A stretch of DNA of 64,000 nucleotides from Styela clava (lineage: Eukaryota > Chordata > Ascidiacea > Stolidobranchia > Styelidae), in assembly GCF_964204865.1 (NCBI RefSeq), contig NC_135259.1, forward strand, positions 4,526,001 to 4,590,000, given 5' to 3'. Below are positions 25,410-51,351 of the stretch, in pieces (the stretch's first letter is position 1; each line of letters starts with the position of its first letter). The notes under the pieces were generated by a model that did not search any database, was not told where the DNA came from, and was given only the letters and a program-made list of their open reading frames with translations. A program made the translations under genes and the position numbers.

Positions 25410-27662
25410 TTATAGTTTAGCTTTAGATTTGTGAATCTTGTCAAGCCACGATATGATAGCGTCGTTTACTTCGTCGTGCTTTTCGACTGTGGCCCAGTGA
25501 CTGCAATTTTCAAGCGCTACTCGAGATAAATCTGGTATTCTGTCTTCCATTCCAAGAGAAAATTCTGGTTTCAATACAAAATCATGTGAAGCGGTGATCA
25601 TCAGAGAAGGTACGACAACTTTTCTGTTTGCGTATTGCATTTGCCAGCCCATGGATTCCTTGTGGTTTCTGTACCAATTCAGTGGTCCCCGAAAACCAGT
25701 TTTCTTGTACTGTTGGGAGTAATACGCCAGATCCTCTTCGTTGATAAGTTTCCCAATCGCAACATCTTCAGGATATCCAACAAACATTCCCCCGCGCTTC
25801 GTAACATTAGTGGTATCTCTAGGAAATGGTTTTCCATCTGGAAATGGGATCGGAACGTCCTTAACCCCACGGAAGAATATTTTAAATGTTCTTGGGATGT
25901 CACTCTCAAACTCTTTTTCAGCTACACCTGGAGCCTGGAAATACATCTGGTAATCGAACGTTTCCGGCTTTGCTTGTATTCTTTTTGCTCCTTCTCCTAC
26001 AAAATGGAAATTGGATTAAGCGCATGCAAAAATTCGACTCCGGTTGCCGACTCTAGGTTGATGAAAAATTCGACTCCGACTCTAGCTACGAACTCCAAAG
26101 GAAAATAAATTTTAATAATAATAATTTAGCATATTCAGGCCTTCAATAATTGACTGTTAATCACGTTTGGTCAACATAATGTTTTAGCTTTCATAGAGAA
26201 TTTTGACTCCGACTATTGCCATTAAAAGTTCCGACTCTCCAAGTATTTCTAAATTTCAACTCAGACTCTAAGGAGTTGAAAATACAACTCCGGACTCCAA
26301 ATAGGGACATGACAAAATCCTACTCAACATCCTTGCACCCATGTTTGATCCTATTTTTAATTTCTCGGTAAAGTTACGATTCATAAGGCCTCACCCAGAG
26401 CGCAAAAATCGAACCAACTTTGGCAGTCCAGAATCTTACTATTGCCCTATAGCCATGACTCTATACATTGAAATTTTTTTTTTGTAGGGGATATCTTCAC
26501 AATAAATTAAAATATGTTCCCTTTTACTGTTTAATTTTTATTTGTATCCTAAGAACATACCTGAAAATAAAGGTGTCGTTATGCCACAAACTCCGTTCAA
26601 ACGATGTGAATAAAACAGTCCCAAGTTCCAAACGACAGCTCCGCCCCAATCATGTCCAACAACCGTTGCTTGACTAATTCCTAGACTGTCCATAAGATCT
26701 ATGGCATCTTGACAAATCTTCTTTTGCGAGTACTCACTGATTTCCGGTGGCGAACTCGAATCACCAAACCCACGTTGATCCATAGCAATAACTCTATATC
26801 CAGCACTTGCCAAAGCAGGTATCTGATATCTCCAGCTATACCATAATTCGGGGAAACCGTGAAATAACATTACTACAGGTCCCTCTCCGATGTCGACGTA
26901 ATGGATTTTGTACCCAGACTTCAGAACAGCTGTTCCGTGAGGCACATCGTCATGTTTGCATGGAGGTGGGTAAACGACATCTGAGGTTCTGCCACTTGTC
27001 AAATCTAACCCGGTGACTTTCTCCAGTTCCTTGATCGCCTCTTTGGGAGTTGTAACCTTTATTGTCGTTATGCCTAACTCGGCGGCACTCTTCAAATTAT
27101 AACCGATATCATCCAGGAATACCGCTTCGTTAGGTTTAACGCCCAGTCTCTCGCATGTTAATTTGTACAATTCCGGATCCGGTTTTCGCAATCTTTCAAT
27201 ACTAGACTCCACCACAACATCAAAAAATCTGCGTAACAAAACTGAAAATTTTGACACCATCTCTTTGTTTTCTCCTCGGTCGTCGATCCAATTGTTGGTG
27301 AGGGCGCAAGTTTTAACATTTTTGATCTTCAGCGTTTTTACAGCATGAAACATATCTTTATGAATTGCCTCTTTTTGTGACATCATCATACTAAATAGAT
27401 TTTCTGTTTTAAACTTCTTTACATCGATGCGGTCCCGCTTTGCCGCAGCCTTGACATCGGCGTCGAATTTAGGAATGAATTCCGAAAACAACAATTCTCC
27501 TCTTTCCAGCTTACAAAAGCTGTTATCCGGTGCTCCATCCATGAATACTTTTCCCAAAAAGCCGATCGGTAATTTCAATTGCTTTTCATAGTTCAGGATA
27601 CCAATTTGTGGTTGAGGCACCAACACGCCTCCTATATCAAAAATAACTGCTTTAAACTTCAT
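25410..27662 (-). CDS. EPHX2: Bifunctional epoxide hydrolase 2-like, copy B
   Basis: Two exons, 26561-27662 and 25410-25996, joined phase 1 through GTATGT and AG, encode 562 residues (human EPHX2 has 555). HAD domain residues 1-220: FDIGG at 8-12 keeps nucleophile Asp9, but the second motif aspartate (human Asp11) is Gly; TNNWIDD at 122-128, Lys160 and Asp184/Asp185 are kept. Epoxide hydrolase domain from about 240: HGFP 268-271, nucleophile Asp338 in GHDWGG, lid Tyr383 and Tyr476, Asp506, His534. It should hydrolyse epoxides to diols, probably cytosolic or peroxisomal; the C-terminal AKL is only loosely like a peroxisomal signal. ATG 27662 is preferred over 27716 because it aligns with the human start. 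Exon 1 has exactly the same length as in copy A, so the genes are tandem duplicates. Confidence 0.95.
26020..26310. repeat. Degenerate 'GACTCCGACTCT' repeats in the EPHX2 copy B intron
   Basis: CGACTCCGG, GACTCCGACTCTAG, TTTTGACTCCGACTA, TTCCGACTCTCC, AACTCAGACTC and ACAACTCCGGACTCC occur within 300 bp. This looks like the repeat-rich interior of a MITE or a decayed minisatellite. Confidence 0.5.
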
Positions 27663-29527
27663 TTTTAAGCTTAAAATGGGGTTAGTTCCTGTGAAACATT
27701 TGAAGCATGTTAGCATTCGGCATACTTTCTTAGCTCCAGACTACAGTAATTATAATAGCCCTACAGTAATACTTGCTTTTTGACCTTTTTTACAATTACA
27801 CACACACTGAATTATCAAGCGGGTATTAGATTTCCTATCCACCTCAAGTAACTGCTGTGAAATGCCGATCAATAAATTGGCGAAAACGGTCTACTACATA
27901 AACTTACATCTAATCATCGATTTTATCAGACCAAGAGTCTAACAACAAGTACTCTGAATATGCTGTGTATCACGCTACACACACGACCCAAACAATACTG
28001 CTAATGAAATTGACTACGAAACCCTTCCACAATTGAATGCAAACTGTTGAATACCGTATATTTTCACTTCATACGCCGACACGACTCGGCAAACAGCACT
28101 CGCGCAGTCCGCTGTACACAATGAATGGTGATCGGTCAATCATTAATCTGCAGACTCATGATACGCTTTTCACGAAAACTGGTACCTTTCCACATGCATG
28201 AATGCCGCAGTATTTCGCAATACAATAGCTCGTTTGGTACGTGCCATACACAAGTACCACTTCGTGCATGAATCTGTGAGAATGATATGGTTACCAGGTA
28301 ATAATCTATGTATATTATTTATTCTATAAATGGAAAAAATTTATTTTAGATTTTTGATCAAGTGTTTATCGGAGATAAATACAATAAAGGCCAGTACATA
28401 CAGACACGGATAACAGTATCACGGCAAGGGTAAGAAATTGCCAACAAATTCGTTTTGTGGCAACCTGCGTAAAGTATGGTTCGTTTACAATATACATTAC
28501 ACAATTCGTCTAGTCATTCATTCACGTGACGTGGTATTTGATATGCTCCAAATCATTTGCGCAATATGTTAACTTATATTGATCTAACACTCCTATAGCT
28601 TATTCTTTGTGTGTATTTCGAAAACTATATTTGAAGAGCTATCGCAGAGAAATTTAAGAAGAGAGGAGAACACACTCCTAGATTTAGTATTAAAATTCAA
28701 TAAAATGGTACCATTTGTAGGTCATTGACAGGTCAATATCCTTTTCGTTTTTTTAACTTCTACTCTGTATTGATTATTCGCGTGTTTATTGTTTACCTTG
28801 AAAATTAGAAAAACCTTTTTCTGTTATGATATATATTTGTAGATTGCCCTTATTACTCCACGCTTATCATCTGCTTATTTTTTAAACTATTCCGCAAATG
28901 TTTATGTTTTACTCATCTAGACTTACGGAAAAGCTTTGACCTGATATTATACTACAGGATAGCTAAGGTACGATTGATGTTGCCCGTGGGTGCCCAATTA
29001 TTATAGTCGGGCAGAATCGGCCTTAACCTTGTTTTGGGACATGAACTATGGCTCACTATAACCTCGAGATAAATAATTTAGAATAAAAAAAATTATGTCT
29101 GAAAACAAGGTCAAGCCTAAAATAGCCTCTTATCTGCCGGACTATTAATCGATAAAACGACATTGGTCTAGTAAATTTAACAAGTGGACTAAATAGTTGA
29201 CTCCATGAAATATACAATCAGTTTACAACCAACTCCTCCATATCCGACTTTTTCTATAAGCTACTTAAAAGATTACACCAGGCGGCGCACCAGAGCTGCG
29301 TACATCTCTTTCCTATCAAATTGATAGTTATCGAATGCTATATACTTTACTTTACATGAAATATATTCCATCGAATGTGAGAGGAAAAGGCGTAAATGCA
29401 AAACTTCAATACAATCTCGGATAGCATTTCATCATCTACTGATAATGTGAAGAACTCTATTTTCTTGCAAACGTATACATATCGTCATATCCTATAAATG
29501 TAATCACGAATGTACTAATTAATTATG
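27663..29527. other. Upstream of EPHX2 copy B, no gene seen
   Basis: AT-rich. The sequence just before the start (TTTTAAG) could be a 5'-UTR splice acceptor. Nothing else is supported; a stretch at 28990-29130 has words like CTTAACCTTGTTTTGGGAC that may be transposon remains. Confidence 0.4.
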
Positions 29528-34526: not shown

Positions 34527-37500
34527 ATGGCATCTACAAAAAGCACCTGCACGAAGTAAGTAAACAGTTCATTATTATCGATAACAGCAAAAAATATTTT
34601 GCTTAAAATAGTTGGAAATTTTTGTAATGCCTAATTTTGGCTGATTTCACTGAATTTCTTTTTAGTTTTGTTTTGAATCATTTTCTTTTTGCTGATCAAA
34701 ATTTTTTTTTTTCTTAGATTCTGCCTTGGATTTCTCATCTTTATCCTGATCGTGAATTTTGACAGAGCTGATTCGTCGCCACCTAACGCTTTAATGGCAG
34801 ATTTAATTCACAAAAGGTAAGATTGTTGCTTGAAAAAAGTAGCTTTAAATCACGCTTGTAATAAAATTTCAATATATATGTTTAAGTATAATATCTGATT
34901 CTGCATGTTCGGGCGTTTCGTCTTTTCCCATAATTGAACACTTTATACGTCTATAACGTCGATAATTTGGCTCTGATGGCTTATACTTTGAAAGTATGAT
35001 CGTTGCTTTTTGCATTATCTACTTTTAATGTTTAATTTTCTTTTATTCATACCATTTAAGACTAACGTCATACTTGAACCTTTAAATCTTATGTGCAGTT
35101 TCTAATTACGGCGATAAGAACAAATGTATATACTCTATTTGTTTTTGAAACAAACTCTTGCGTGCCATCATTACGCAATTGACATAAAATTAGAGTGGAA
35201 ATTGCACAAATGTTTATGCGATATTTCTATTAGATCGATACGTGCTTTTTTCGTCATTTGTGCCACCCGAAATTGTCTATACGTTCTCTGTACTCTGCTA
35301 TCTAAATTCAATCTACGTTTAGTGCCATGTAAAAAACGGTGACGTAAATTTGAATAGTTTTTGAGTGAATTGCGTATTAACAGGCCAAATAGCATGTATA
35401 ATTCAACAAAATGAGTTCGAGTTTCAAATTACATACCAAACGTAGGCGCTTGATAAAAATCTAAAATCGTGCTCTATCTTTTTATCTAACTTCTTATCGG
35501 AAGAATCGTTTGAATTTATGCGATATTTCTATTAGATCGATACGAGCTTTCTTCGTCATTTGTGCCACCCAAAATTGTCTATACGTTCTCTGTACGTTTA
35601 GTGCCATGTAAAAAAACAGTGAAGTAAATTTGAATAGTTTTTGAGTGAATCGTGTACAGGCCAAATATCATGTATAATTCAACAAAATGAGTTTCAAATT
35701 ACAGAACAAACGTAAGCATCGGTATCGCAATATAATGTACGTTTATCATATTTTGTGGTTTTCTCCAAAATATTAACTTCAATACCGTACCAAGTACCGT
35801 AGTACACATATAATTTTATAAGCCACAAATTATATGTTTTTTAATAAACATCTAGTAACTTTGTGCCATGCCCGGCGTTAAATAATTACCGATTTATCAT
35901 TAGTACCTGAATATGGCTGGAAAACATCATGCTTGGAGAAAGCAAAGCTTCGAGTTTAAATATTTGAAGGTCATTTTATAAATTTTGTGAATGATTTGCT
36001 TGATAAAATCTAAAATCGTGCTCTATCTTTTTAGCTAATTTCTTATCGGAAGTATCGTTTGAATAACATTTTGTTGTAGAATATTTTAAAATACTGTTTT
36101 GTCTGTAAGAAATAGGCACATACATATATTTTTTGATAATTTTCGTAATTCATTTGTTGACAGTTTTTTGTGGTTCAACATAGAAATCAATATTGATGTT
36201 GAAAAAAAATATACAAAATAAACGGAGTGTGTTTTCATCATTCTTTGGTTTCATATTTTTGCGTACATCATGTAAACCACCATAATAATGATTACATTAA
36301 CATAAATCGCATAAAATAAAATATATTCTCGATATTTTCTCTGACATTTAATGAATATTTTTTTCGATCTGAGTAAACACAATTCGATATTTAATAACTT
36401 TGGGAATACATCTCGATGTATCTAATATCAAACAAAACATGCGTCAAATGGATTTTTAGAATATTCTAGATATTATCAAAAAAGCTGAAAACTTCATTTT
36501 AATATTTCGCTTATTTTATGACTTGTTTTTCCATGTCAGTGATATACCCGTAAATTCTATATTATTCCGATCATGAGCTGCCGTATTGAATATCGTTGTC
36601 ACATAAAAGGTTATGATACTCATATAAAACTGAAAAAGCGACCTTTCAAACGTTACTTTTTTGCTAAAAATCGCAGGAAAATAAATGTATACTTGAAATA
36701 GAATACTTTAATGGAGGAGTCCAATGCTCAACATTTTATCTGGAAAACATATGAAAAACAAAACTGCATCAAAGCTGTTTATACGATTAACGTAATATAA
36801 CATAAATACAATACGTGAAAAGATGTCTGATCGCTTATATTTTTTGTCACATGCGCCTCAAAATATTAGCACAAAAGATTCATTACATTTAATTCATAAA
36901 ATTTGATATTTTCTTCAATCTAAATAATAACTATTGGCCAATTTCTAATTCCATTCTGATTTCAGTGTTATGTAATTTTTCTTCTTATCAATTCATTTCA
37001 AAAAGTTAGAACGTTTTTTTTCATTTGAAAACACCTGAAAATCGTTTCACTTTATTTACAGCATGCTGTACCGCATTACAAACGGACAACAAGGTCTCAG
37101 TCCATCACAAGTGAATAGTATGATTAACCTGCGTATGATGGAACACAGTAGAAATCAAGGAAGTGCAAGAAGAATTGCTCTTGAATGTTCTAGACCGATG
37201 AAACGAGGATGTCACAAGTTATCTAGAAGATGTTTTTCTTCTATTCTTGTAAAGAGAAGCATTGACTCACAATTGAAAGGTATATTGAAGATTCTCACAT
37301 TATTTCATTTCCTAATGCTAGTTTATATTAACTCTACAATTCATATAACACATTTCGCAAATGAGAATGATAAGATAGTATATCTCACAATCATAACATG
37401 TTTGCAAATCTCATCAAATTGTTGCACAACTGATCCTTTAGTGTGGCTGATGTTGAATACATTGCGTCATTTTTTACATTTTGTTACGTTTTTCAGCTCA

Positions 37501-37654
37501 GAAATCGTACTGGTATGACCCAAAAGTGGATGACGTCACTGAAATCAATGAAGAGTTGGAATCTCATCACATAACAAAAAGATATGCATCACGGCGTTAT
37601 GGAGGCAGAATCAGAATAAGCTGTGGTCTTTGCAGGCAAAAATGTTGGAAGTAA
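34527..37654 (+). CDS. Secreted six-cysteine peptide precursor, paralogue 1 (unrecognised family)
   Basis: Four exons, 34527-34555, 34718-34816, 37062-37279 and 37497-37654, with phases 2, 2 and 1, encode 167 residues. Residues 1-28 are a signal peptide (hydrophobic core FCLGFLIFILIV). Then come a basic region, Cys85, Cys93 and Cys100, a dibasic site LVKR (105-108), a linker with SIDSQ and YWYDP...TEI, a second site ITKR (141-144), and a basic tail ending with Cys158, Cys161 and Cys165-Trp-Lys. Donors GTAAGT and GTAAGA are strong. AATAAA follows at 37668-37673. The paralogue at 45766-50752 has the same exon phases, the same last-exon length (158 bp) and identical cysteine spacing. The family is unknown to me; it looks like a processed hormone or cationic host-defence peptide. 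It is not insulin by cysteine pattern. Confidence 0.9.
35213..36068 (+). repeat. Imperfect tandem duplication inside intron 2 of the peptide gene
   Basis: Unit 1 is 35213-35515. Unit 2 begins 35516 with the same TTTATGCGATATTTC and follows unit 1 to about 35715; its last part (GCTTGATAAAATC to GTTTGAA) resumes at about 35999-36066. About 280 bp separates the halves of unit 2, either inserted there or deleted from unit 1. Confidence 0.75.
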
Positions 37655-38773
37655 AATCTAATAATAGAATAAAACGACGCAAGATACGTATCTGCATCGG
37701 GTTATCTATAGAAGAAGTGGAAGGACCACAGTGCCATGGAGCTGACTTATACATGAAACTAAAATAACAATAAATACTAGTAGTTTTTATAAATTTAAAA
37801 CTGTAATTGTAATTTATTCTGATTGTTTCATTAAGCAAATCTTATGTAAGCTTTATATAACTTGTTCAATAAAAATTTATCCAAACAAAATGATCCAAAA
37901 TTGAGCGATTTTTATATTGATGGAGTAGTGTTGGAATTTTTACAATAATCCTGATGTTATGAATGGTCATTCCAAATCCAAATTTTTCAAAAATATTATT
38001 CAAGTCAAAAAATATTCTCAATTTCGTGATTAACATAAAACATGTATAAGATACCAAGACAAAATGAATCGTTTGAAAAACATTGTTAAAAGCATTTTTT
38101 TAATCTTTATATTGTGTACGAAATAATTTTGTGCAAAAACTTTTTTAGTGGGAATATTTATGTCCGTTAATTGCACTGTTACGGCATTTGATGTTATAGT
38201 TATAAACGAGTATTATTCGCATAGTATTGGTAAAAAAAATATACACTTTTTGATAAAATGTATTTTGTTTTGTTTTAGAATGCATTCACTCTCCTATAGA
38301 CATGTATACTTACTTTCATATCATGTTTAAATAATATTATTGCTGTCAATCAGACGTTTAATAAATTTGATACATTTAACAAAAACGTGCCTTTCATTCC
38401 AAAGTTCCAGCATTTTATTAATTTTAATCAATTGTATTTTTATATAAATAACTTTATTGCCCGAACTAAAATGTTCGTGTATATACTTATCCTAAAATGT
38501 TTGTAAAGTCTGTTTTATCGATGAAATCATTTAATAAAACAAGTTAATACGGATAATATATTGCAACCATGTTTGGGGTTCAACGCTTGACGCAAGAAGT
38601 TATTTTTAGAAAATCAGAATCTGTTTGTTTTTACAAGAGATTGACCAGAACAGATTCGAGGCGGTTCGATTGCAAAAACGAAAAGTAGAAGTCACACTCA
38701 TTCATGGGTTCATTCAAGTCAATTAGAAAAATATAGTTTAGTATAAAATAGCGATGACCAGTAGGAACTTCTG
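37655..38773. other. 3' flank of the plus-strand peptide gene
   Basis: AATAAA hexamers at 37668, 37769 and 37868 are candidate poly(A) signals. Otherwise AT-rich and without recognisable features. Confidence 0.45.
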
Positions 38774-38990
38774 CGCTCCAGAAGTGTGTGTACCAATATG
38801 GAAGCAACTAATTTTGTTCGCCTACTTTGCAGTTTACAAGTTGTGTACAGGGACTGAAACCTATGGGCTAGGGGGTATATTAACTTGGCTAACACAGGCA
38901 GTCCAAGAACTCGTAATAGAACTAAAATAAGGAAAATCGGAATAAAATTATGGCCTAACCCTAACCTGGTGCACACTCTACGGGAGTAGT
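38774..38990 (+). mobile_element. Long-form MITE
   Basis: Arms GCTCCAGAAGTGTGTGTACC and GGTGCACACTCTACGGGAGT; the inner part carries AATAGAACTAAAATAAGG and TATGGCCTAACCC as in 1077-1299. Confidence 0.75.
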
Positions 38991-39315
38991 TCTTTTCAAT
39001 TCAGGGCAAAAAACTCAAACGTCACACCTGCTTTTTTGGACGCGTACGCAACTACAAAAAATTACCTAGGGTCAGCGTCAGCGTCCGACATTCCGTACGT
39101 AAGCAACGGAATGTCGTGAACGGATCTCTGACCCTAGGTAATAAGCTGCAGAAACGCCAGTTTTAAAATGAGCAATTTTTTTAATTCTTCGTAAAAATTT
39201 AAATGAATGACTAATGAATTAATTTGTAAGTAAGTTGTAACATGTAAGTTGTACATGCTGCCATAGGGGCGTTTATTCGAATTAAGTAGAGCTAAAAGTA
39301 TCTTATACTGTATAT

Positions 39316-39625
39316 CAGGGGTGTGCAACTTGCGGCCCACAAGGAAAATTTGTGCGGCCCGCCGAGAAACGCCATTTTTGAATGGTGTGCGCCCGCTAAA
39401 CCCAATATTTAATTTAATCTAGTATGTACGGGTAATTCCAATTCCTTTGCGCTGCAATGACTGTATCTGCGCTTGTGCAAAGCGAACAACGCATGTCACA
39501 AGATCAATAACCAAAATATTTGTGTCTGCAACTACTAGAAGACTTATGTTAAACAAAGTTGCAGCCCGCGGTTTCATACAATTATTTGTATCTGGCCCTC
39601 GTGTATTAAAGGTTGCACTCCCCTG
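39316..39625 (+). mobile_element. hAT-like MITE, best copy of its family
   Basis: 310 bp, ends CAGGGGTGTGCAACTTGCGG and AAGGTTGCACTCCCCTG. Flanked by perfect CTGTATAT at 39308-39315 and 39626-39633. Same family as 6259-6575 and 55537-55850; the ends also resemble 8227-8654. Confidence 0.9.
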
Positions 39626-39633
39626 CTGTATAT

Positions 39634-40027
39634 CATTAGAAAATAAGAAAAAAGTAAAATCGTTTCAAAGCTTGGTAAAGTCCAACATTGTTATTGAAGA
39701 TTTACAAAATGGCTTCCACAATTCTGCACATTTTCATTTCCACTATCAGAGGCAATATTATTTGCAGATTCACAATCTCAAATTATAAATCATTATGGGA
39801 TAAACACGGATCAAACAGCATAAACTTAAAAGTAAATTGCTTCTGAATATCTTGTTCCGTGATAATGTTCCAGAAAAAGAATCGCAGTAGAGTTTAATTG
39901 AATGCCATTGCATCGAAGATTTTAAGCTTGTGAAACCTTTCCTGAAGTTTACCAGTTCACTGGACCGATAATAATGGCGACCGCATATGTGGGTGTTAAC
40001 TGAGTGAATATGTTATATTTTATTCGC
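39634..40027. other. Intergenic, nothing recognised
   Basis: AT-rich sequence between two MITEs with no supported feature. Confidence 0.4.
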
Positions 40028-40221
40028 CGCTCTAGAAGTGTGTGTATCCATATGGAGGTAACTAAAGGTTGTGTAAACGGACTAAAACTATGGGCAGGGA
40101 CAGAGGGTATCTTCACTTGGCTAACGCAGACAGTCCCCGTTTTAGTAATAGAACTAAAAGAAGGAAAATCGCAATAAAATTATGGCCTAACCTTGACCTG
40201 GTACACACACTACGGAAGTAC
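40028..40221 (+). mobile_element. Long-form MITE, shorter copy
   Basis: Arms GCTCTAGAAGTGTGTGTATC and GGTACACACACTACGGAAGT, with inner AATAGAACTAAAAGAAGG and TATGGCCTAACC. Confidence 0.72.
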
Positions 40222-40412
40222 CATATTTTCTAATTAGGGCCTATTTGAGTGGACATTTATAGCTAGAAAGCCATTACGTTTGCAGCAGCGGAATCTTTTT
40301 ATATTGGTTTTTCATACCCAATTTATTATATATATTCTGGGCGAAATGGTAAAATGACAAATTATGACGAACCACTTCCCCTACTTTTAATGAACTGCAA
40401 TGCAAAAAACAG

Positions 40413-40520
40413 TGGTCCGGAAGTATGTGCACAAGATGACGCACAACCTGACCCCCTAACCTGGTACACATACTATGTTCAGGTTGTGCGCCATTTTGGT
40501 GCACATACTTCGGGAGCACC
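40413..40520. mobile_element. Short foldback MITE
   Basis: Arms GGTCCGGAAGTATGTGCAC and GTGCACATACTTCGGGAGCACC around AACCTGGTACACATACTATG. Same family as 15617-15722. Confidence 0.75.
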
Positions 40521-41085
40521 AAAAAAATTAGTATTCATATAAACCCAACAACATATACTATAAGAATCTACTGATCAGATTTTTTGTAACTTCAACCAGA
40601 CTGCAATATTGTTATCATGATTCACAATCATACGAATGTGTCAAGGATTTATTGTTTGGTTATTTTTTAAACTATATCAAGGGTAATCGCTAAGTTGCGA
40701 AGAGGAGCCTACACGCCTATACTGCATAAACCTTCCTGTCGCATAAGACAATTTCGTTTTGAGGGTTTGAAATAAATTTTGGGACTTGCAGTCCGATAAA
40801 TATTCAATTTGCTCAAACAACTAAAATAGCCTTTAACATGTCTGAGGGCGTGTGGGTATTTATTCAGCAAATGTTGGTCCAGCCAGATTTTTATCTAGAA
40901 AGTTGTACAGGAGAATTTGTTGACCAGGATATTTGTAAAAACTACGCTGCTGTCACATTGCGCAACATATTTGTTTGTCTGTCTGTCGTATCAATTTATA
41001 CATGCGAATGGAATCCACTATAGAATTCTTTAAAATCTATTTTATGTTTTAAAACTTTATACTCATGAAATAAGTATGTACGCCA

Positions 41086-41555
41086 GTGGTCAGCAACCTT
41101 TTGCGCTCGCGGGCCAAAAATTGAAGGTTGCAAGTCAGTGGCGGACCGCACATATTTTTAGAAAGTTAAAAACCGAACAGATGGTTGATGAATCACACTT
41201 TTTCACACAGATCGGAAGTTAAATTTTGAGCAGCGCGCGAAGACTAACCATTTGAATATTTTCTGCGCCATTAAACTATTTGCACTTAGCATCAACTTTT
41301 CTGCGTTTTGTTGCCATTTGTGTAATTAAAATTAAATTAAGGGGTCATTAAACGAGTAATTGGGAAATATATACTTGTTAGGGGATATTATAGTTTAGTC
41401 TACACGTGTCTAAAAATAAATTTTGTTACGTAAAGAATATATAGTAATCGTCAAAACAGCTGTTCTGTTACTATAATTCAGCGAGCGTCGCGGGCCGGAT
41501 GATACTGCTCCGCGGGCCTGATCCGGCCCGCGGGCCGTAGGTTGCCGACGCCATT
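41086..41555. mobile_element. hAT-like element, 470 bp
   Basis: Ends GTGGTCAGCAACC and GGTTGCCGACGCCATT, with CGCGGGCC words just inside both ends. Flanked by perfect GTACGCCA at 41078-41085 and 41556-41563. Confidence 0.78.
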
Positions 41556-41563
41556 GTACGCCA

Positions 41564-44351
41564 TTAGGAATTGCTAACAGGGATATTTATAGAAATAATT
41601 GTTTTCGATGCAGTATAAGGTTGCACTTTACTCCCTAAGCCATTAATATTAGATATATCGATTGCTCGGATCATTTTTGGATATTAATATTATATTTCTA
41701 TAAAGTGCGTGTTCTGTGGTGTGATAACGAGTAAGCAATATTATTGAAATTGAATATTTTTTTATATCGAAAATATGCTGCTGATTTGTTGAATTGTTGA
41801 AGTGAAATTGCAATAAGAAACGTATAGGCCGTTTCTCTATGCTTTCGAAAATGTAGTTGAGGCATTACGTAAGATCACGAGAATCATATCCTTCACATCA
41901 ACTGTCAACAAATTTTTGATGAAAGTATGCTATCCGGAAGTTAAAATATGCCGGTTTTACTCGGGAGTGTGTCACTCTCAACAGAGCATTCTAATCGCCC
42001 GAAGTGGGCGTGTGAATTGCTAAATTTACCCATTCAACACTGTAATCATGTATATGTCAGTGTATTCATTCTGCACACAAGGCTAGTACAGTATAGTTAC
42101 TTTTATCGTCATTTTGTGTTGGTGTTGAATAGTAATATTACTAATACTATTACAAAACCCAAAATTTCAGTCATTATCCTTATATATACCCAGACTGTGC
42201 CCTGTCCAATTATTTTCGCATAGAGCCCCACAATAGTTAAAACCGGCTCCGTGTCTGCCTTTTTACAAGAAAACAAACCATATGTGGTGTTTTCCATTAC
42301 TTCTTTATTTTCCACTATTTGGCTTATCCATTTGGGTTTATTGAACAAGTTCGTGGTTCAGGCTTCGCCAGTGTCCTGAAGTTGGACTTTTATTATTGCT
42401 TAGTTTCATTGAATATCAAACAACGCAGTTTGACTCGCATAGCAAATTTTGTTATTCACTGTGTGCTTTCTTAGATTACACCTATATCTCGCTATCGCGT
42501 GTTGGATGTGGTGAAGCATGTATTTGAGGGTTGGAATCATATATTTGAGTAAAGCTTTCGAATAAAGTTACATAAGGCAACGAAAGTCCATTATTGGTCG
42601 GCGTCTTTAGAACTTCTCAGAAGGTTACGATAGATGGCCATAACAAAAGCTAGTTTTCGACCCTGAACATACCGCAACAATTTATCAAAACCCAAGACTG
42701 ACCTTCAATATTCACCAATACAATTTCGATCATATTTTTTCATTGCATTAGATATGTAAGTGAATTTGTCTTTGGACAAGTCAATTGTTAATTATAAGAA
42801 TCTAACAATATCGCATCTACCACTGGAGAAATGATAAGTTTACACGCTGAAATAAATTTTAGTGTTGGCATTGGTATACAAGTATATTTATGTGTGTTCA
42901 TATGCGTTATATAGCGTAATCTAACACTGTGTTATGCTCCATACAAGAATTAAACTTATTATCATACTAAGTAATTTTATTTAACCTTACTATCCTTGAT
43001 TGCAATTGCCCCATTTGTATTTTCACATTTTGGGAATGCCTACGTGATGTGAATTTTCACATAGTGGGACAATTTTCAAAAATACTCTGCCTAATTGACG
43101 GTAATAGAAATATATTTTGTATATAGGATTGCAAAAATGTTCTCTTCAATTTACTTCAGTATTGCATGTTTTCGTGCCTTGAAATCGCTTCTAAGGTATC
43201 CTAAATTTTGAAATGATGTTTTTTTCTTTAGTATGCATGTATAGTTCATATTGCTGACCAAGCATGCTTCAACACTCACATAACTTTGTCCTAAGTTATA
43301 ACTCTCTTAAATACTTCTACTTATTTTCTATTTTTGACTTAGTGGGGTAGAAATACACTAATACAGTGTTTGAATGATTGCAGTAGTTGACAAAACATGA
43401 TTTTCCAGTATTTCAAAATTATTCTGTATCCTTCAGTATCGAAAGCGTGGCAACGACGGAACTACTGTTTATCTATTCAAAGTAGAAATGCACATAATTT
43501 CTGAGCACACTTGTAAAATCACATCTAACCGATTTCTAAAAATGCGAGTCAAGTTACCAACTGGAAAACATTGAAGATGATATTATTTTCGCCTATAATA
43601 TCTATGTTATGATCTTAGGCTGATGGGAATGAAGTTTTTAACAAGCAATCGTGTAAAAGAGGAATGAAACTTGAATATTTTTTTACAAAACGAACAAAAT
43701 ATGTTTCCCATTGAATCGTCAACTGTGTGAACTTAAAGGAAGAGAATGAATAATCATAGTTGTAGTTAGGTTCACTGGAGTTGTCTCGTCTTGATACGCC
43801 TGGTGGTTTCCGAAGTTGTTATGTCAAAAACAATTTGCTTATTATGTAGCGTTCTGAAAGTGTATGAACGATCAATAAAAAACCACAGTTATGCTATAGT
43901 TGAAAGTTTCTGCGACTATGGGCTACAATTTTAAATCATCAGACGTTATGTCACCGTGAAATAGCGGCTCAGAATAAAACTCAACACCGTTTTATTTTCA
44001 TATTAAGTAGTCCAAACGTATGTGCATTACGAACTTTTTTGGTCATAGCACAAATTTTTAAATGATGATTCATTTATATGAATATTTATTATTATTTTTT
44101 ATACACTTTGTACAATTGTCAATATTGAAACTCAAATGCAACAAAAAAGGAATTAATGAACACTGGATGAAACGAAAGAAAATTTAAAATTTCTATTCAT
44201 TTGCTTTATTTACATTTGTTCTAAAGAAAAATCTCTGATGGATAGCGTTTATGAAATCGAAGAATCTGCTTATTTGACAGACCTATAAAAATTGTTCGAT
44301 TTGATACACTATCAATTTATTTATTTTTATTTTGTTTCCAGAGATGAGTAC
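41564..44351. other. Intergenic between the two convergent peptide genes
   Basis: AT-rich. No gene, RNA or domain recognised; short frames (for example 41948-42223) look random. Confidence 0.4.
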
Positions 44352-44731
44352 CATGTCTCCCGAAAATAAGACCTACCCCGAAAATAAGATCTAGCCTAAA
44401 TTTTAAAAAGGATTTTAATACATGCTTTAATATATGCTTCGCTTAAAATACGACCCAGTCGATAGTTCAAATTTTTTTTGTTTGACCTAGTGGATAGCAA
44501 GAAATCGTTTCCACTCGTTTTAAAGGATTAATAAATTATATTTAGTAGTTTTTTTTTAAATAAAAACGTGTTATTTACAAGCAAATGGATATCGGTTTTA
44601 AATTTTGTATATTTAAAAACCTCGTAATTCTCTAAATCAAAATATAAGACATTTTCCCAAAATAAGCCCTAGTGTTACTTTTCGAAAGAAAATTTAAATA
44701 AGACACTGTCTTATTTTCGGGTAAACACGAT
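44352..44731 (+). mobile_element. MITE of the 'CCGAAAATAAGACC' family
   Basis: Begins CTCCCGAAAATAAGACCTAC and ends GTCTTATTTTCGGGTAAACACGA, inverse of one another at the tips. A diverged copy is at 2560-2922 in inverse orientation. Confidence 0.8.
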
Positions 44732-45627
44732 AAATAGTATTAGAAAGTAATATATAAATTTGATATGCTTGTGTCAGTTGAAGGGTACACCAAAATACCC
44801 AGTAATCAGCTCATTAGGACTATGTATGTTGAAAAGCGCAAGTTGATTGTAGCCTGTTGCCTGAAAATCCAGATTTCGCAAGATCCAGAAATAATAGGGC
44901 TGCAATCGTAATGACTATCATATTTTGTTCTTTTCCATAGCTTTCAGAGAAAAACTAACTTTTGCTTCTTTTTATAGTTTTAAACCAGGACTGTGAAGTC
45001 GAAATCTGTCATGATTTCACTAAATCGGACTTAATGGAATTTGGAACTGCAGTCTTTCAATGGTGATATAATAAGTCATAACCAAAAATCAAAAAGCTCT
45101 GAATTTATTAAGATTTCTTAACAGACTATTAACAGAAGGCCCGTAGTCGGGTGTCGCTTTCCCCAGACTCTAAGACCCTTCTTTAAACACTCTAATGCGA
45201 TCAAGGGTAATCTAAAATCTACATTATCGAGAAATTGTCAAAATAATACTAAAAGTTCACTTGTTAAGCAGGAAGGGGTTGATTAAGTTTGTTAACGCAT
45301 TATGCACCATATTAAAATAGAAAATGATCCAATATCATGATGTTGCGACAAATTGCTAGTTTCGAAAGTTCATCCGGTTTTTTAAATTCTAATCGCAAAA
45401 CAACAAACAACACAAAATATGCATAAAATCTTATTATTTTGAGATGAAAAAATTTACTCTAAAGCCAATACTACGAACCAATAAGGCGAACATATATACA
45501 TCATAATTTTATCGTAAAACATTGATATATAGAAAAAAAACTTCAACTTTCGATTTCTGTACGTGTAGCTGACTAAAAATTTTTTGTACATTTTGATCTA
45601 CTGGTAATTAGAAACTGTCTGGAATAT

Positions 45628-45629
<2 letters not shown>

Positions 45630-45665
<36 letters not shown>
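45630..45665. repeat. (TA)n microsatellite
   Basis: Uninterrupted alternating T and A of more than 30 bp, about 100 bp beyond the stop codon of the minus-strand peptide gene. Confidence 0.95.
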
Positions 45666-45667
<2 letters not shown>

Positions 45668-45765
45668 CGTTTATTTAGCATACGTTTCCATGCACTAATA
45701 AACGGAAAACTAGTATTTATCAAATTTAATCCCCATTTTGAGCTATATTGAAGTATTATTGTCCT

Positions 45766-48700
45766 CTACCAGCATTTGTCTCGACAAAGTGGGCAAGAAA
45801 GTCGAATTCTTTTTCCTTTTCTCCGTCTTTTTGTTGCTCTTTTCATCACGTGATGTTGATTTTCCTCGATTTCAGTAATTTGATTAGTTAAAGGATCGAA
45901 CCAAAATTCTTTATTGGATGCATCTGTGATATATTAATCAAAATAGATGGTATTAGGTTAGAGCTGCCGCGAAACCATGGCGGGATTTCCAAACCATGGC
46001 CGCTATGAACAAACCCACGGCGACTGACTTTTTAGCTGCCACGAACCAATAGCGAGCTGCCGTCGTTACAGCAGCAAATCGAATACCACCAATTTTGCTG
46101 CCGTAACCACGGCATGTCGGCTGTAATAGCAGAGCTGCCTCATATGGTGATAAATATTGGGTAAGTTGGAACGCTTTTTTTATGAATACAGTTTTGATGT
46201 ATTTGGGGTTAGGTTTAGGTTTAAGTAGATATAATTCCGCATGATAAACTAAAATATTGTACATACTTGCGATTGCTCAACCGCCACATGGTGCGCAGTT
46301 TTGACTTTGATGGCGTCGTGACACATGACTTCAAAGTGAAAAAAGAATTACAAAGAGCCCAAAGAAGTTTTTGAAATAAATAAAAGTAATAGCAACAAGC
46401 GACAACAACAATCTTTGAATAATTTCCAAAGAATGGGCCAGTTGTTAAAAAAAAGACGATTTTTTCTCAATAACAACAACAAAATGATCCATAGTTTCAT
46501 TTCGTGTCTAAAAACGAAAAGAAGGAATTAGATTCGATGGTATTTTTATGAAACCTGAAAAAGACGGCTAAGACGTTACAGTAAAAGCAAATGTACAGAG
46601 CATGATTTCCATGCGGTTTTGTGAAATAGCGGACAGACAGACAGATAGTAGACAAAAATATTACAGTTCATCATACGGCAAAGCGATACTCCAGTGAAAC
46701 ACATTTTAACCCGAAACACTCGCAGATTTCATTAGGAATCAAAAGAATGCAGACGAATCCACGGGCAACTTTAAAAAAAATTACAATTATTGCGTCATAA
46801 TCAAAAATCTAGTCTAAAAAAAACAACGAGATAATACGCGAATACACAATAGGTTAGGTTTACGTGATGTGCCTTCGTCTAGTGTAGAAATTAATTTCGA
46901 ATTTAACATTTATATATATGCAGAATAAACGAAGGTTAATTAAACTCTATGATATGCTGCATGATACTACACGGCAGTTTAACTTAAATAGCCACGATCT
47001 ATTTTTCCGTAAATATAACAAAGATAGGCCTCACCATACATCTGCGAATCAATGCTTCTTTTCGCCAATATGGTGGAGTGGCATACTTTCGTTAAACGGA
47101 GGCAACCCCATGTCATTCTGCGAGAACATCTTTCCACAGCAAGGCGGGTTGCACTTCCTTCACGTTTACTCCAAGCTATCATCCTCATTTGAACGTATTG
47201 CTTCATTAATCGTTCACTTATTGCTCTCCTCGTGTGTTTTCGTACATATTCCAGTCTGTAAACATGACATTAAGAATTACATGGTGAACATATTTAGATG
47301 AATTCATTGAATTTTTTGGATTGTGTGCTCTTTGACATCAGAGTTATAGCGATGAAGTAGGAGTTGGTACAAAACCAATCATTATACAATAATATTCGAG
47401 AATAAACAAACATAATGACACAATTCTACTGGGTGGGGGAAGTCGCGGGGAACCAAATCTGGTTATCGAGCTGCGACAGCGACACCGTGCTGACAATTCT
47501 CCCACTTTTTTAGTCCCAGCAAGCTCTTTTCGAGTGGACACTTTATGTTATTTTAATTGAACGTTTTGGTAATGTTTTACTAAAGTACTACTTAATGTGA
47601 AACTTGCTATTAACATTACAATCAATTTTTATGTCAAATAATGTAAGCATTGTTTCACATCGTTCACTACGCAAAAATGAACAGTTTAATATGGTTTGAC
47701 TTCTCATGCACGCCACCTAAAGGATGTCTTATTTTTCGTTCGGTTTTGACATACAGTATAGGTTCAATCTTATTGGACACGTAGTGGACATAACGATCGT
47801 ATCAAAATTTTGTTGTTATTGTTATTATTATTTGTTACATTATTTTTAAAAAATCGCTTTTTACTTCGAATACTGGACCAATTGCTTCGAAATTTTTAGT
47901 GGTTGAAGATAAAAATTGTCCCCAGAAGGCTATTACTTTTATTCATTTTAAATATTTCTGTTAGCTCTGTGAGATTTGTTTTTGTTTGCTATGACGTCAT
48001 TAAACGTTCTGCGGACTTCGGACGTCATTTTGTGTCCTACTGTACTGCTGCACTTGGTGTGAATATATTTGTATGACTGTGATCTGACGGTACGGTAAAC
48101 CGTACTGTACTGCGAACAGACGTGTCCATATATTTGGGCGTAGCTCTCTTGTTTTATATTTATATGATACCACATTTGCTTTTATAGTAAACCCAATTTT
48201 GAAAAATTCTACTGACTATCATGCTGGTGATTAAAATTGAAACTGTTGCTGAAATTTGTGGTTAGTATTGTCGAAATAACCGAGCACGGCTTAAAATCTA
48301 TACTTTTTAGTGACATTTAAAAGTACACTGTTGCACCCACGATATAATTTGAATTAGTGCTGAAATTCAACATTCGAATGAGGTAAAACGTTTGAACTCG
48401 TTGTTACATCCGCCAATTATTCAAAATATGTATTTATGTGGGATTTAGCCTCTATTATACTTCATCATAATAAATAATTATCGTAAAATGATCTAAGATT
48501 GCACCTTAGACTTTTCCCGTAGGCTAATGTCAGATTCTACCACGTGATAAGAAATTTTGTGTTTTTGCTGTGCATCTGTGTGACGTAGCGTAACTATAGA
48601 TGCTTTTATAAAGAAGTGAGTTTTATACCGCTCATGGTATGTTAGAGTTACACAACGACTGGTCCAAGTACGACTAAAATAAATGGCGGAATATAGGGTG

Positions 48701-50752
48701 CAAGGCTGGGACTCTGGGACTCCGGTGTGTGCCGAGAATACGCTTCCGCAAAAGTCTGCTGTCAAGTCTATGATAAAACTAGTAAAGTTCTTGATCGATG
48801 CGTATATTTATTTATCATAAACGACGTAAATGACGTTAAAATTAGAGATACGGAACGACGGAATAAAAACAGTGAAAAAACCAACTTAAATTATATATAT
48901 GAAAGTTTGATGAGTCACGCAAAATCTGGCATGTAGTATTTGGACAAATAGCATTCCAGCAACGATTACTATGCGAGTTGTAGTCTATTAACGCATTTAA
49001 GGAATTGTTTATGTAATTCTTCAATTTAGTGCTAATGTTGGTATTTGCAGATAGTTTGTAGAGGTTATGTATTTTTAGTGTGTCAGCCTTCCTTCCCGCT
49101 GTATGGGTGGTGTATTATTACCAATCCATATCTAGTTCGCATTTTTCACGACCTATTTTCTTCCCAAAAGTGCTGCTTATCTTAATGGCATCAGAAACTA
49201 CCGCGTAAAAACGAGCTTGTCTTGTTACATGAACTTAAAATTGCTGTAACTAGGATCGGATAGTATCTTGATAACAATTCTCAGTAGGAAATAGTTGTTT
49301 GGCAAAATTGTTTGTAATGCTGCTTTATACGGACCACTCACGTCTACGTTTAGCAGAAGGATCATAAAAAATATCAGGGAGAAAAGGCCGAAATGTCATT
49401 CTAGCTTTTTTAACACGACAATACGAGTTCTACAACATTCAGCGATACTATTCGAGAATCAAAAATTCCCGTTTGCACAAAATTATTCATGAATAGTTTG
49501 GGAGCATAGTCGTGTTAGAAATGATCTTCAAAATACTGCTTTTTTTCTTAATCCCACAAACGGGAACGCAGTATAGGATAATGATATTTTTTGACACTTA
49601 TACCTATCATATATGCCCATATGCTTATAATTAAAATACTATCCAATACAAAGTCCATAAAACTAAAAGTTACCATAAATATTTTTGTCTGACATTAAAA
49701 CATAATCTCGAAACATCACGGACGTGTAAAATATTAATACGTTATATTTACGGATGGAATTGACGGAAAGATAAGTTAAAAAATGCAAATTTTCGAGTGT
49801 TTATTCCATAACCAAATAGGTTATCTTAAATTGATAGCCTGCTGTCAGAACTCTAAATCTAGACCACCGTTTCTCAACAAGTGGGCCCACTGCTTGGCCA
49901 CAGACCATTTTTAGATGGGCCATAAAAATATTAAAAATTGCTTGAGCCATTGATAAATTGGTATAACTTGAAGTAGCAATGAATTATGTTGATTTTGGAA
50001 CTGAGTGATAATTTTCATTTTTACTAAAAAAGTGTCTATTTTTGCAAAAATAGTTTTTACGTTTTTTTTGTAGTTTTTCCCTTGCATGAGAAAGTTGATG
50101 GTTCACAGAATTTATTTGCAACTAAAGTGGGCTAAAAATAGTTGAGAACCACTGATCTTGACTACAGAGCTTCTGTGATTGCAATTTGTCGGGATTACAC
50201 TCTCAAAATAATCAATACCTTTTTTTTGTCATTTGCGAGTTCTTTTTTGCTGATATGCCTGGTATAGAAATTGCAGTCAAAAATAAAATTGCTCCCAAAA
50301 TGAATCTGTAATATGAGTTAAAACTATAAATAAATATTTGAAAACAAAATTGAAGGCTGTAGATTGTACAAATATTTTCATTTCAGAATAAACTAGTACA
50401 CAAACTAGAGACACAAATATCATAACTCCGTTGGATAGCAACGTCTGGAAAGCATCTTACCACGAATTAAAATGACCATCAATGTAATATTGAAATTAAA
50501 AAATACGATTATCTCAGTCTCAAAGTTTCCTTTTGTATCAATGCTTGATTCGTCTCAACACTGCTTGATAATTTTTTTAAAAAATCCGCATTTCATGAAA
50601 AACTACATTGGCAAAAATAGTGCGAGATATTTGATTTTGCCATTCTTTAATTAAGCCCATTAAATTATTTTTAAAGTGAAAAATGTAAATGAAAGTAGAT
50701 AAAAATATATTCTAAATTTTACAAACCTTATTGATAGTGCTTTGATCTTCAT
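45766..50752 (-). CDS. Secreted six-cysteine peptide precursor, paralogue 2 (unrecognised family)
   Basis: Four exons, 50727-50752, 50219-50305, 47035-47255 and 45766-45923, with phases 2, 2 and 1, encode 163 residues. A signal peptide (core FILGAILFLTAISI, likely end near ISA28) is followed by a very basic region with repeated KR/RR, then Cys81, Cys89 and Cys96, LAKR (101-104), SIDSQ, FWFDP...TEI, VMKR (137-140), a K/R-rich stretch, and Cys155, Cys158 and Cys162-Trp. Spacing C-x7-C-x6-C and C-x2-C-x3-C-W is identical to the plus-strand paralogue at 34527-37654. Exon 1 was found through the phase-2 GTTTGT donor at 50726, which gives a continuous signal peptide. A minus-strand AATAAA lies at 45670-45675. 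Exon 1 is the least certain part. Function unknown; a processed secreted ligand or a cationic antimicrobial peptide are both possible. Confidence 0.87.
45955..46150. repeat. GCTGCC-rich patch in intron 3 of the minus-strand peptide gene
   Basis: GAGCTGCCGCGAAACCATGG and related GCTGCC words recur, with GAGCTGCC near both ends. GC-richer than the surroundings; probably a decayed mobile element. It also creates a 103-codon frame without recognisable content. Confidence 0.4.
47256..49856 (-). other. Intron 2 of the minus-strand peptide gene, left part
   Basis: AT-rich, no further exon or element convincingly recognised. Several short open frames on both strands look random. Confidence 0.4.
49865..50154. 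mobile_element. hAT-like element, 290 bp
   Basis: Ends CACCGTTTCTCAACAAGTGG and AGTTGAGAACCACTG. Flanked by ATCTAGAC (49857-49864) and ATCTTGAC (50155-50162), one mismatch. Sits in intron 2 of the peptide gene, 65 bp from its exon 2. Confidence 0.82.
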
Positions 50753-50932: not shown

Positions 50933-51351
50933 TAGGGCTGGGCATTTTCGAATACCTTGTGATTTCAGAATCGAATCGAATAATATTTTTCGAATCGAAT
51001 CGAATCTCGAATACTTGAAAATATATAATTGTAAGCGATTTTATTATAGTAATTGGTCCTCTCAACAAATGAATTACCGAAGAGATAGAATAAATCACCC
51101 AGATAGATTACTGAGCGCTCACACAGAATAACAAACACGTTTTATCAATAACTCACTACAGAAAATAGTCATATGTTAGAATTTCGTTGAAAAGATATGA
51201 CTCCAATGAAAATAAAATTGGGGAATTCACCTCGACCATTAGCGGAAAGATAAAAACAAGATGGCGGCGATTCGAAATTTAGCTCTGAATCGATTCGAAT
51301 AATTTACTATTCGATTCGATTCGAATATTCGATTCGAAATGCCCAGCCCTA
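50933..51351. mobile_element. MITE with long TIRs and TTCGAATC repeats, near the start of paralogue 2
   Basis: 419 bp, ends TAGGGCTGGGCATTTTCGAA and TTCGAAATGCCCAGCCCTA, near-perfect inverse. Flanked by perfect CTAATGAC at 50925-50932 and 51352-51359. The interior carries runs of GAATCGAATCG. It begins about 180 bp upstream of the ATG at 50752. Confidence 0.9.

What the first reader, a model, noticed from the sequence alone, without database searches (positions are those of the whole stretch)
34527..50752. Undescribed pair of secreted six-cysteine precursors in tail-to-tail genes
Two genes, 34527-37654 (+) and 45766-50752 (-), were assembled from four exons each. Both give a signal peptide, C-x7-C-x6-C, a KR site, an aromatic-Asp-Pro...TEI linker, a second KR site and a C-terminal C-x2-C-x3-C-W. 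Cysteine spacing and intron phases (2, 2, 1) are identical and the last coding exon is 158 bp in both, while other residues have diverged. Conserved cysteines, processing sites and the W, SIDSQ and TEI words amid divergent sequence indicate selection on a real peptide. I know no family with this pattern.
Basis: partly seen in the sequence, partly recalled or inferred. Interest (0 to 1): 0.92.

Follow-up and report, generated by a model that had tools for sequence, protein, structure and literature searches.

The report
Sea-squirt two-chain secreted peptide genes
Two neighbouring, anciently duplicated genes of a probable sea squirt encode small secreted precursors that look as if they are cut into two disulfide-linked chains, as insulin is, but with a different arrangement of cysteines that matched no family searched here.

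Summary
Both four-exon genes join as described: GT-AG at all six introns, phases 2-2-1, identical spacing of the six mature cysteines. The proteins (167 and 163 aa) align far beyond chance (local score 282; best of 1000 shuffles 58). Residues 76-167 show purifying selection (second- against third-position changes, p = 6.5e-5). Exons 3 and 4 are well supported; exons 1 and 2 rest on splice sites and a signal-like stretch. Searches of the 376.6-Mb genome find only this pair. A GH6 match suggests a tunicate. Pfam, NCBIfam, PDB, phage, viral and prokaryote searches gave no relative. No animal protein collection was available, so 'undescribed' is untested where it matters. Best reading: a dibasic-processed prohormone whose acidic linker between two KR sites is excised, leaving two basic chains with three cysteines each, joined by disulfides. 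Layout and a phase-1 intron in the linker resemble insulin genes; cysteine spacing does not, and an insulin-like exon elsewhere in this genome is recognised by the same tools. Against it: the linker is about as conserved as the chains, and gene A has a further KR inside chain 1. Rivals: antimicrobial peptide, rewired insulin, linker peptide, uncut protein.

The parts
34527..34555 (+). Gene A exon 1, start codon, 29 nt, phase 2 donor
   Evidence: ATG context and GTAAGT donor; no cross-hit with gene B
34718..34816 (+). Gene A exon 2, signal peptide and start of pro-region
   Evidence: 12-residue hydropathy peak 3.3; no cross-hit with gene B
37062..37279 (+). Gene A exon 3, pro-region, cysteine chain 1, KR site 1, start of linker; phase 1 donor
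   Evidence: matched by gene B exon 3, genome-wide E 1.6e-9
37159..37251 (+). Gene A chain 1 (residues 76-106; N-terminal end assumed), C-x7-C-x6-C, charge +7
   Evidence: 17 of 31 residues identical to B
37252..37257 (+). Gene A KR site 1
   Evidence: conserved in B
37497..37654 (+). Gene A exon 4, 158 nt: rest of acidic linker, KR site 2, chain 2, stop
   Evidence: matched by gene B exon 4, genome-wide E 4.2e-10
37577..37582 (+). Gene A KR site 2
   Evidence: conserved in B
37583..37651 (+). Gene A chain 2 (residues 145-167), C-x2-C-x3-C-W-K, charge +7
   Evidence: 14 of 22 aligned residues identical to B
50727..50752 (-). Gene B exon 1, start codon, 26 nt, phase 2 donor
50219..50305 (-). 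Gene B exon 2, signal peptide
   Evidence: hydropathy peak 2.75
47035..47255 (-). Gene B exon 3, pro-region, chain 1, KR site 1, start of linker; phase 1 donor
47063..47158 (-). Gene B chain 1 (residues 71-102; N-terminal end assumed), C-x7-C-x6-C, charge +5
47057..47062 (-). Gene B KR site 1
45766..45923 (-). Gene B exon 4, 158 nt: rest of acidic linker, KR site 2, chain 2, stop
45838..45843 (-). Gene B KR site 2
45769..45837 (-). Gene B chain 2 (residues 141-163), C-x2-C-x3-C-W, charge +9

Best explanation
The two genes encode paralogous secreted prohormones. After signal-peptide removal and oxidative folding, proprotein convertases would cut at the two shared KR sites and release the acidic linker (34 residues in each). 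That leaves a basic chain 1 with C-x7-C-x6-C (31-33 residues if it begins where gene B has a KR at 68-69; gene A lacks that site) and a basic C-terminal chain 2 (23 residues, C-x2-C-x3-C-W). Each chain has three cysteines, an odd number, so the simplest product is a two-chain peptide with three disulfides of which at least one is interchain. It would act as an extracellular signal, most likely at a cell-surface receptor. Shown: gene structure of exons 3-4, cysteines, KR sites, charge layout, purifying selection. Inferred: exons 1-2, secretion, cleavage, disulfide pairing, two-chain product, signalling role.
For: All six mature cysteines and two KR sites are conserved between paralogues that are 41% identical overall. 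Segment identity: signal 6/26, pro-region 9/44, chain 1 17/31, linker 15/32, chain 2 14/22; net charges A/B +7/+5, -5/-6, +7/+9. Constraint is seen in residues 76-167 and not in 1-75. The intron in the linker is phase 1 in both genes, after seven linker residues; [quoted passage not shown] By identity the chains are the best-kept parts, the signal and pro-region the least, unlike centrocin antimicrobials, whose pre-pro and interchain regions are alike while the mature chains diverge (PMC4805251, passages seen). Only two loci found in the genome.
Against: No transcript or peptide evidence. The linker is about as constrained as the chains: NG86 dN is 0.40 for chain 1, 0.40 for the linker counted with its KR sites, 0.48 for chain 2, unlike a discarded spacer; relaxin C peptides show negligible similarity even between close species (PMC551602, passages seen). 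Gene A has another KR inside chain 1 (90-91) and both genes have further dibasic pairs in the chains. The strongly cationic chains also suit an antimicrobial role. dS is saturated (1.1 to 2.3 by two methods, or not computable; YN00 failed). Only two sequences were available. AlphaFold on exon 3 was low confidence (pLDDT 54); the exon 4 job never finished.
Confidence: 0.43

Rival explanations
1. Two-chain or cysteine-rich antimicrobial peptide: two cationic chains kept harmless by the acidic linker until cleavage, like sea-urchin centrocins or, for the cysteine clusters, the ascidian turgencins.
For: Chains are strongly basic and the linker acidic and fairly conserved. Turgencins A and B end C-x2-C-x3-C, A with a leucine before the second cysteine, and are reported to pair C1-C6, C2-C5, C3-C4 (PMC7024374: abstract, section 2.2 and part 1 of 2.3 read). 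Centrocins are heterodimers with an excised, conserved interchain segment (PMC4805251, passages).
Against: By identity the chains are the best-kept part and the signal and pro-region the least, opposite to centrocins; but that compares two paralogues here with orthologues there. First-cluster spacing C-x7-C-x6-C differs from the turgencins' C-x3-C-x4-C. Only two copies found in the genome.
Confidence: 0.22
2. A derived member of the insulin/relaxin superfamily in which cysteines were moved to a 3+3 arrangement while the B-C-A layout and the phase-1 intron stayed.
For: Two cysteine chains of about 31-33 and 23 residues flank a KR-bounded acidic linker; phase-1 intron in the linker. Ambulacrarian insulin-like genes share a phase-1 intron in the C domain, dilp7-type and multinsulin genes also a phase-2 intron (its place was not compared with ours), and octinsulins have eight cysteines (PMC8286064, passages).
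Against: No C-x10/12-C in chain 1, no CC-x3-C-x8-C in chain 2 (patterns recalled). No PF00049 match listed at E up to 10 (HMMER's filters drop most matches above 0.1), no PDB match, and hhalign against this genome's insulin-like exon aligns one column at 0.2% probability, while Pfam and PDB searches recognise that exon. Phase-1 introns are common (recalled), so one match is weak.
Confidence: 0.12
3. A multi-peptide neuropeptide precursor whose active product is the conserved linker peptide (SIDSQ...HH), the cysteine parts being scaffolds.
For: Linker lies between two shared KR sites and keeps SIDSQ, W-x-D-P, TEI and HH; identity 15 of 32, and dN no higher than in the chains.
Against: All six cysteines outside the linker and the final W are kept; by identity chain 1 and chain 2 are better kept than the linker. 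No amidation glycine precedes KR site 2.
Confidence: 0.12
4. A single-chain secreted six-cysteine protein that is not cut at KR.
For: Linker constraint similar to the chains.
Against: KR is retained at both places where charge changes from basic to acidic and back.
Confidence: 0.1
5. Pseudogenes or a chance assembly of exons by the first reader.
For: Exons 1 and 2 have no sequence support across the pair.
Against: Shuffle test, genome-wide E-values, codon-position pattern, intact frames and GT-AG sites in both copies.
Confidence: 0.01

Closest known systems
Insulin/relaxin superfamily prohormones (Pfam PF00049)
   Same: Signal peptide, cysteine chain, dibasic site, linker, dibasic site, C-terminal cysteine chain; phase-1 intron in the linker; six cysteines in the chains
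   Different: 3+3 cysteines spaced x7,x6 / x2,x3 in place of the insulin 2+4 pattern (recalled); about 45-residue pro-region before chain 1; conserved linker; no profile match; an insulin-like B-chain exon lies elsewhere in the genome
Centrocins (sea-urchin two-chain antimicrobial peptides)
   Same: Pro-region, cationic chain, excised conserved interchain segment, short second chain joined by disulfide
   Different: One disulfide in place of a likely three; in centrocins the pre-pro part is conserved and the mature chains diverge, the reverse of chains and pro-region here
Turgencins (ascidian six-cysteine antimicrobial peptides)
   Same: Tunicate source, six separated cysteines, last three spaced x2,x3
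   Different: Single 35-36-residue chain, first three cysteines spaced x3,x4, C-terminal amide, 7-8 residues between clusters

Membership tests
Insulin/relaxin superfamily | Match to family profile PF00049 | tested here: not met
   No match listed at E up to 10 for either protein or the four exon pieces (filters drop most above 0.1); control exon L015 matches at 6.8e-5
Insulin/relaxin superfamily | B-chain C-x10/12-C and A-chain CC-x3-C-x8-C (pattern recalled) | tested here: not met
   Observed C-x7-C-x6-C and C-x2-C-x3-C at the end of the protein
Insulin/relaxin superfamily | Phase-1 intron in the C domain (PMC8286064, passages) | tested here: met
   Last intron is phase 1, after seven linker residues in both genes
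Insulin/relaxin superfamily | Two interchain and one intrachain disulfide (PMC551602, passages) | not testable with these tools
   No peptide; spliced protein not submitted for folding
Centrocins | Heterodimer with a single disulfide; variable mature chains, conserved pre-pro and interchain parts | tested here: not met
   Three cysteines per chain; chains best kept, signal and pro-region least; the linker is fairly conserved, as in centrocins
Turgencins | C-x3-C-x4-C ... C-x2-C-x3-C in one short amidated chain | tested here: not met
   First cluster x7,x6; KR-bounded linker between clusters; no C-terminal Gly
Tunicate host | Cellulose-synthase-linked GH6 domain in an animal genome (recalled) | tested here: inconclusive
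   One PF01341 match, 35.4 bits over a 27-bit cut-off, at G000:C9:16179895; a neighbouring frame in L014 looks membrane-like by eye; cellulose synthase itself not tested

The most novel reading that the evidence does not exclude
A previously unnamed two-chain peptide-hormone system in tunicates: an insulin-like biosynthetic plan (basic chain, acidic excised linker, basic chain, phase-1 linker intron) built on a different 3+3 disulfide framework, either convergent with or derived by rewiring from the insulin superfamily, with two paralogous ligands.
Probability: 0.3. Interest if true: 0.75.

Novelty: new variant of a known kind. Interest (0 to 1): 0.5.

Why it matters
[quoted passage not shown] A two-chain prohormone family with its own disulfide framework would be a new ligand class to match with orphan receptors, and would test whether the insulin-style plan of two chains cut from one precursor arose more than once or can be rewired. 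Orphan secreted peptide families are, however, common in fast-evolving genomes, and relatives may already sit unnamed in animal databases.

Tried and rejected
Rejected: chance assembly (shuffles; genome-wide hits); insulin membership (controls 48, 51, 65); turgencin and centrocin membership. Weak Pfam and NCBIfam rows (best E 0.049, all far below cut-off where one is given: DUF4390, STING_TM, PorA, SSP160, PRK06954, PgfA, Thiolase_N) were taken as chance. The E = 3 hit at C14:6490870 (27% identity, a stop inside) was taken as chance. One paper uses the string Cx7Cx6C: the C-terminal domain of bird defensin AvBD11 is Cx6Cx6Cx7Cx6CC (PMC9138766, passages); it has a CC ending and more cysteines in one chain, so it was set aside.

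Led nowhere: viral (121 pattern stretches, none confirmed) and prokaryote (219, none confirmed) contig scans; phage scan with gene B only; COX1 search to name the host (none). AlphaFold of the exon 3 pair gave pLDDT 54 and helices only, and no fold search was made. Searches of the open-access library showed no paper describing this pattern, as far as the listings went: 25 of 252 asked for and listed at most; 9 of 9; 12 of 39; 12 of 36; 25 of 53; 12 of 20. PMC12441681, a Ciona neuropeptide atlas, was seen as passages only; it has no occurrence of insulin, relaxin or disulfide. PMC13208793, other six-cysteine ascidian peptides of 18-19 residues, was seen as abstract only. Most subscription papers are not held. 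I considered a nested C1-C6, C2-C5, C3-C4 pairing from spacing alone; it is not tested. The species was not identified (listings did not settle it).

Full report
Observation. Gene A is on the plus strand (exons 34527-34555, 34718-34816, 37062-37279, 37497-37654; 167 residues). Gene B is on the minus strand (exons 50752-50727, 50305-50219, 47255-47035, 45923-45766; 163 residues). Every intron is GT-AG, and the phases are 2, 2 and 1 in both (which corrects exon 1 of B). They are convergent, with 8.1 kb between their stop codons. Polyadenylation-like hexamers follow both stops. The stated motifs are all present, and cysteine spacing C-x7-C-x6-C and C-x2-C-x3-C-W is identical in the two. Gene A has two further cysteines in its signal-peptide region.

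Is it more than chance? The local alignment score of the two proteins is 282; 1000 shuffles of B reach at most 58. In a six-frame search of all 376,610,584 bases of the same genome, protein A finds gene B's exons 4 and 3 (E = 4.2e-10 and 1.6e-9), and all 5 of its matches lie in these two genes (7 candidates, all scored). Protein B gives 6 matches, 5 in these two genes and one chance-level hit at E = 3 (9 candidates, all scored). In residues 76-167, codon positions 1, 2 and 3 differ at 38, 23 and 50 of 89 codons (p = 6.5e-5 for 2 against 3). In residues 1-75 there is no such excess (45, 35, 41 of 70; p = 0.4). Of 59 identical residues other than Met or Trp, 27 are encoded by different codons. 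A nucleotide comparison of the two gene regions, exons and introns alike, finds nothing better than E = 0.19, so the duplication looks old. Synonymous sites are saturated (dS 1.1 to 2.3 or not computable), so dN/dS is only indicative. Exons 1 and 2 have no similarity support across the pair. They are accepted because the frame just upstream of exon 2 holds no ATG and because exon 2 gives a strongly hydrophobic N-terminus.

Anatomy. By segment, identity A against B is: signal 6/26, pro-region 9/44, chain 1 17/31, linker 15/32, chain 2 14/22. Net charge A/B is +7/+5 for chain 1, -5/-6 for the linker and +7/+9 for chain 2. The linker is bounded by KR in both genes. The start of chain 1 is assumed: gene B has a KR at 68-69, gene A none there. 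Gene A also has a KR within chain 1 (90-91), and there are further dibasic pairs in both proteins, so other cuts are possible. Each chain has three cysteines, so a fully oxidised product of one precursor needs at least one disulfide between the chains, or a dimer of precursors. This is inference.

Host and surroundings. The genome holds one GH6 match over the family cut-off, which, from recalled knowledge of the tunicate cellulose synthase-GH6 fusion, suggests a tunicate; cellulose synthase itself was not tested. Neighbours in the window include two frames with HAD-like and alpha/beta-hydrolase domains, as in bifunctional epoxide hydrolase, a cyclophilin piece, a DTW-domain protein and a reverse transcriptase (seven frames scanned). 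None suggests a function for the pair.

What it most likely is. The layout - basic cysteine chain, KR, acidic linker, KR, basic C-terminal cysteine chain - is that of a two-chain prohormone. [quoted passage not shown] But the family tests fail. No PF00049 match is listed at E up to 10, no PDB sequence matches, and hhalign aligns a single column at 0.2% probability against this genome's insulin-like exon. The cysteine spacing is also different. The same tools do recognise that insulin-like exon elsewhere in the genome (C6; one B-chain match, E = 0.0186 in the genome search; PDB IGF/insulin hits from E = 5.5e-6; Pfam E = 6.8e-5); its A-chain exon was not found. So the pair may be made like insulin without being shown to be one. 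One phase match is weak evidence, as phase-1 introns are common (recalled).

Rivals. A two-chain antimicrobial remains possible: cationic chains and an acidic linker are as expected, centrocins are such heterodimers (PMC4805251, passages), and the turgencins share the C-x2-C-x3-C tail (PMC7024374). Against it, in centrocins the pre-pro part is conserved and the mature chains diverge, while here the chains are best kept by identity and the signal and pro-region least; the two comparisons differ in kind (paralogues here, several species there). The conserved linker is the main result against a simple 'discard the spacer' reading: its dN (0.40, KR sites included) is no higher than that of chain 1 (0.40) or chain 2 (0.48), whereas relaxin C peptides have negligible similarity even between close species (PMC551602, passages). 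The linker could be a second active peptide or a folding aid, or the protein could stay uncut.

Structure. AlphaFold on the exon 3 pair gave low confidence (pLDDT 54.4, pTM 0.33; helices 2-6, 14-31, 35-42, 51-71) and was not used for a fold search. The exon 4 job did not finish (last asked). The spliced proteins were not submitted.

Novelty. No relative was found in Pfam, NCBIfam, PDB sequences, phages (gene B only), or in pattern-limited scans of viral contigs and prokaryote genomes, and the paper listings (most of them capped) showed nothing with this pattern. No animal protein or transcript collection was available, so a known relative is not excluded. I rate it a new variant of a known kind (dibasic-processed, disulfide-linked secreted peptide), interest 0.5.

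Noticed in passing
window 50934-51351: A 418-bp transposon-like element with terminal inverted repeats (AGGGCTGGGC-type ends) lies about 180 bp upstream of gene B's start codon. The genome search gave 2190 candidates, 40 scored: 40 rows (this copy included) are near full length at 96-100% identity, two others at 100%, and 22 rows are short terminal-repeat matches at 75-79%. It looks young and very abundant.
   Followed up: partly
G000:C6:3057192-3057263 (L015): An insulin/IGF-type B-chain exon of the same genome, used here as a positive control; its A-chain exon was not found in that search.
   Followed up: partly
window 20353-27740 (-): Two frames (21381-22700, 26538-27740) with HAD-like and alpha/beta-hydrolase domains, probably tandem bifunctional epoxide hydrolase 2 genes; frames 20353-20934 and 25410-26015 look like their 3' parts by eye, with a sub-cut-off Pfam match for the first and none for the second.
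   Followed up: no
window 60180-61865 (+): Long open frame with reverse transcriptase and zf-RVT domains, probably a non-LTR retrotransposon piece.
   Followed up: no
window 35213-36064: Several locally duplicated segments (30-81 nt, 90-97% alike) inside intron 2 of gene A.
   Followed up: no
window 38865-38988 and 40097-40220: A 124-nt direct repeat (84%) between the two genes.
   Followed up: no
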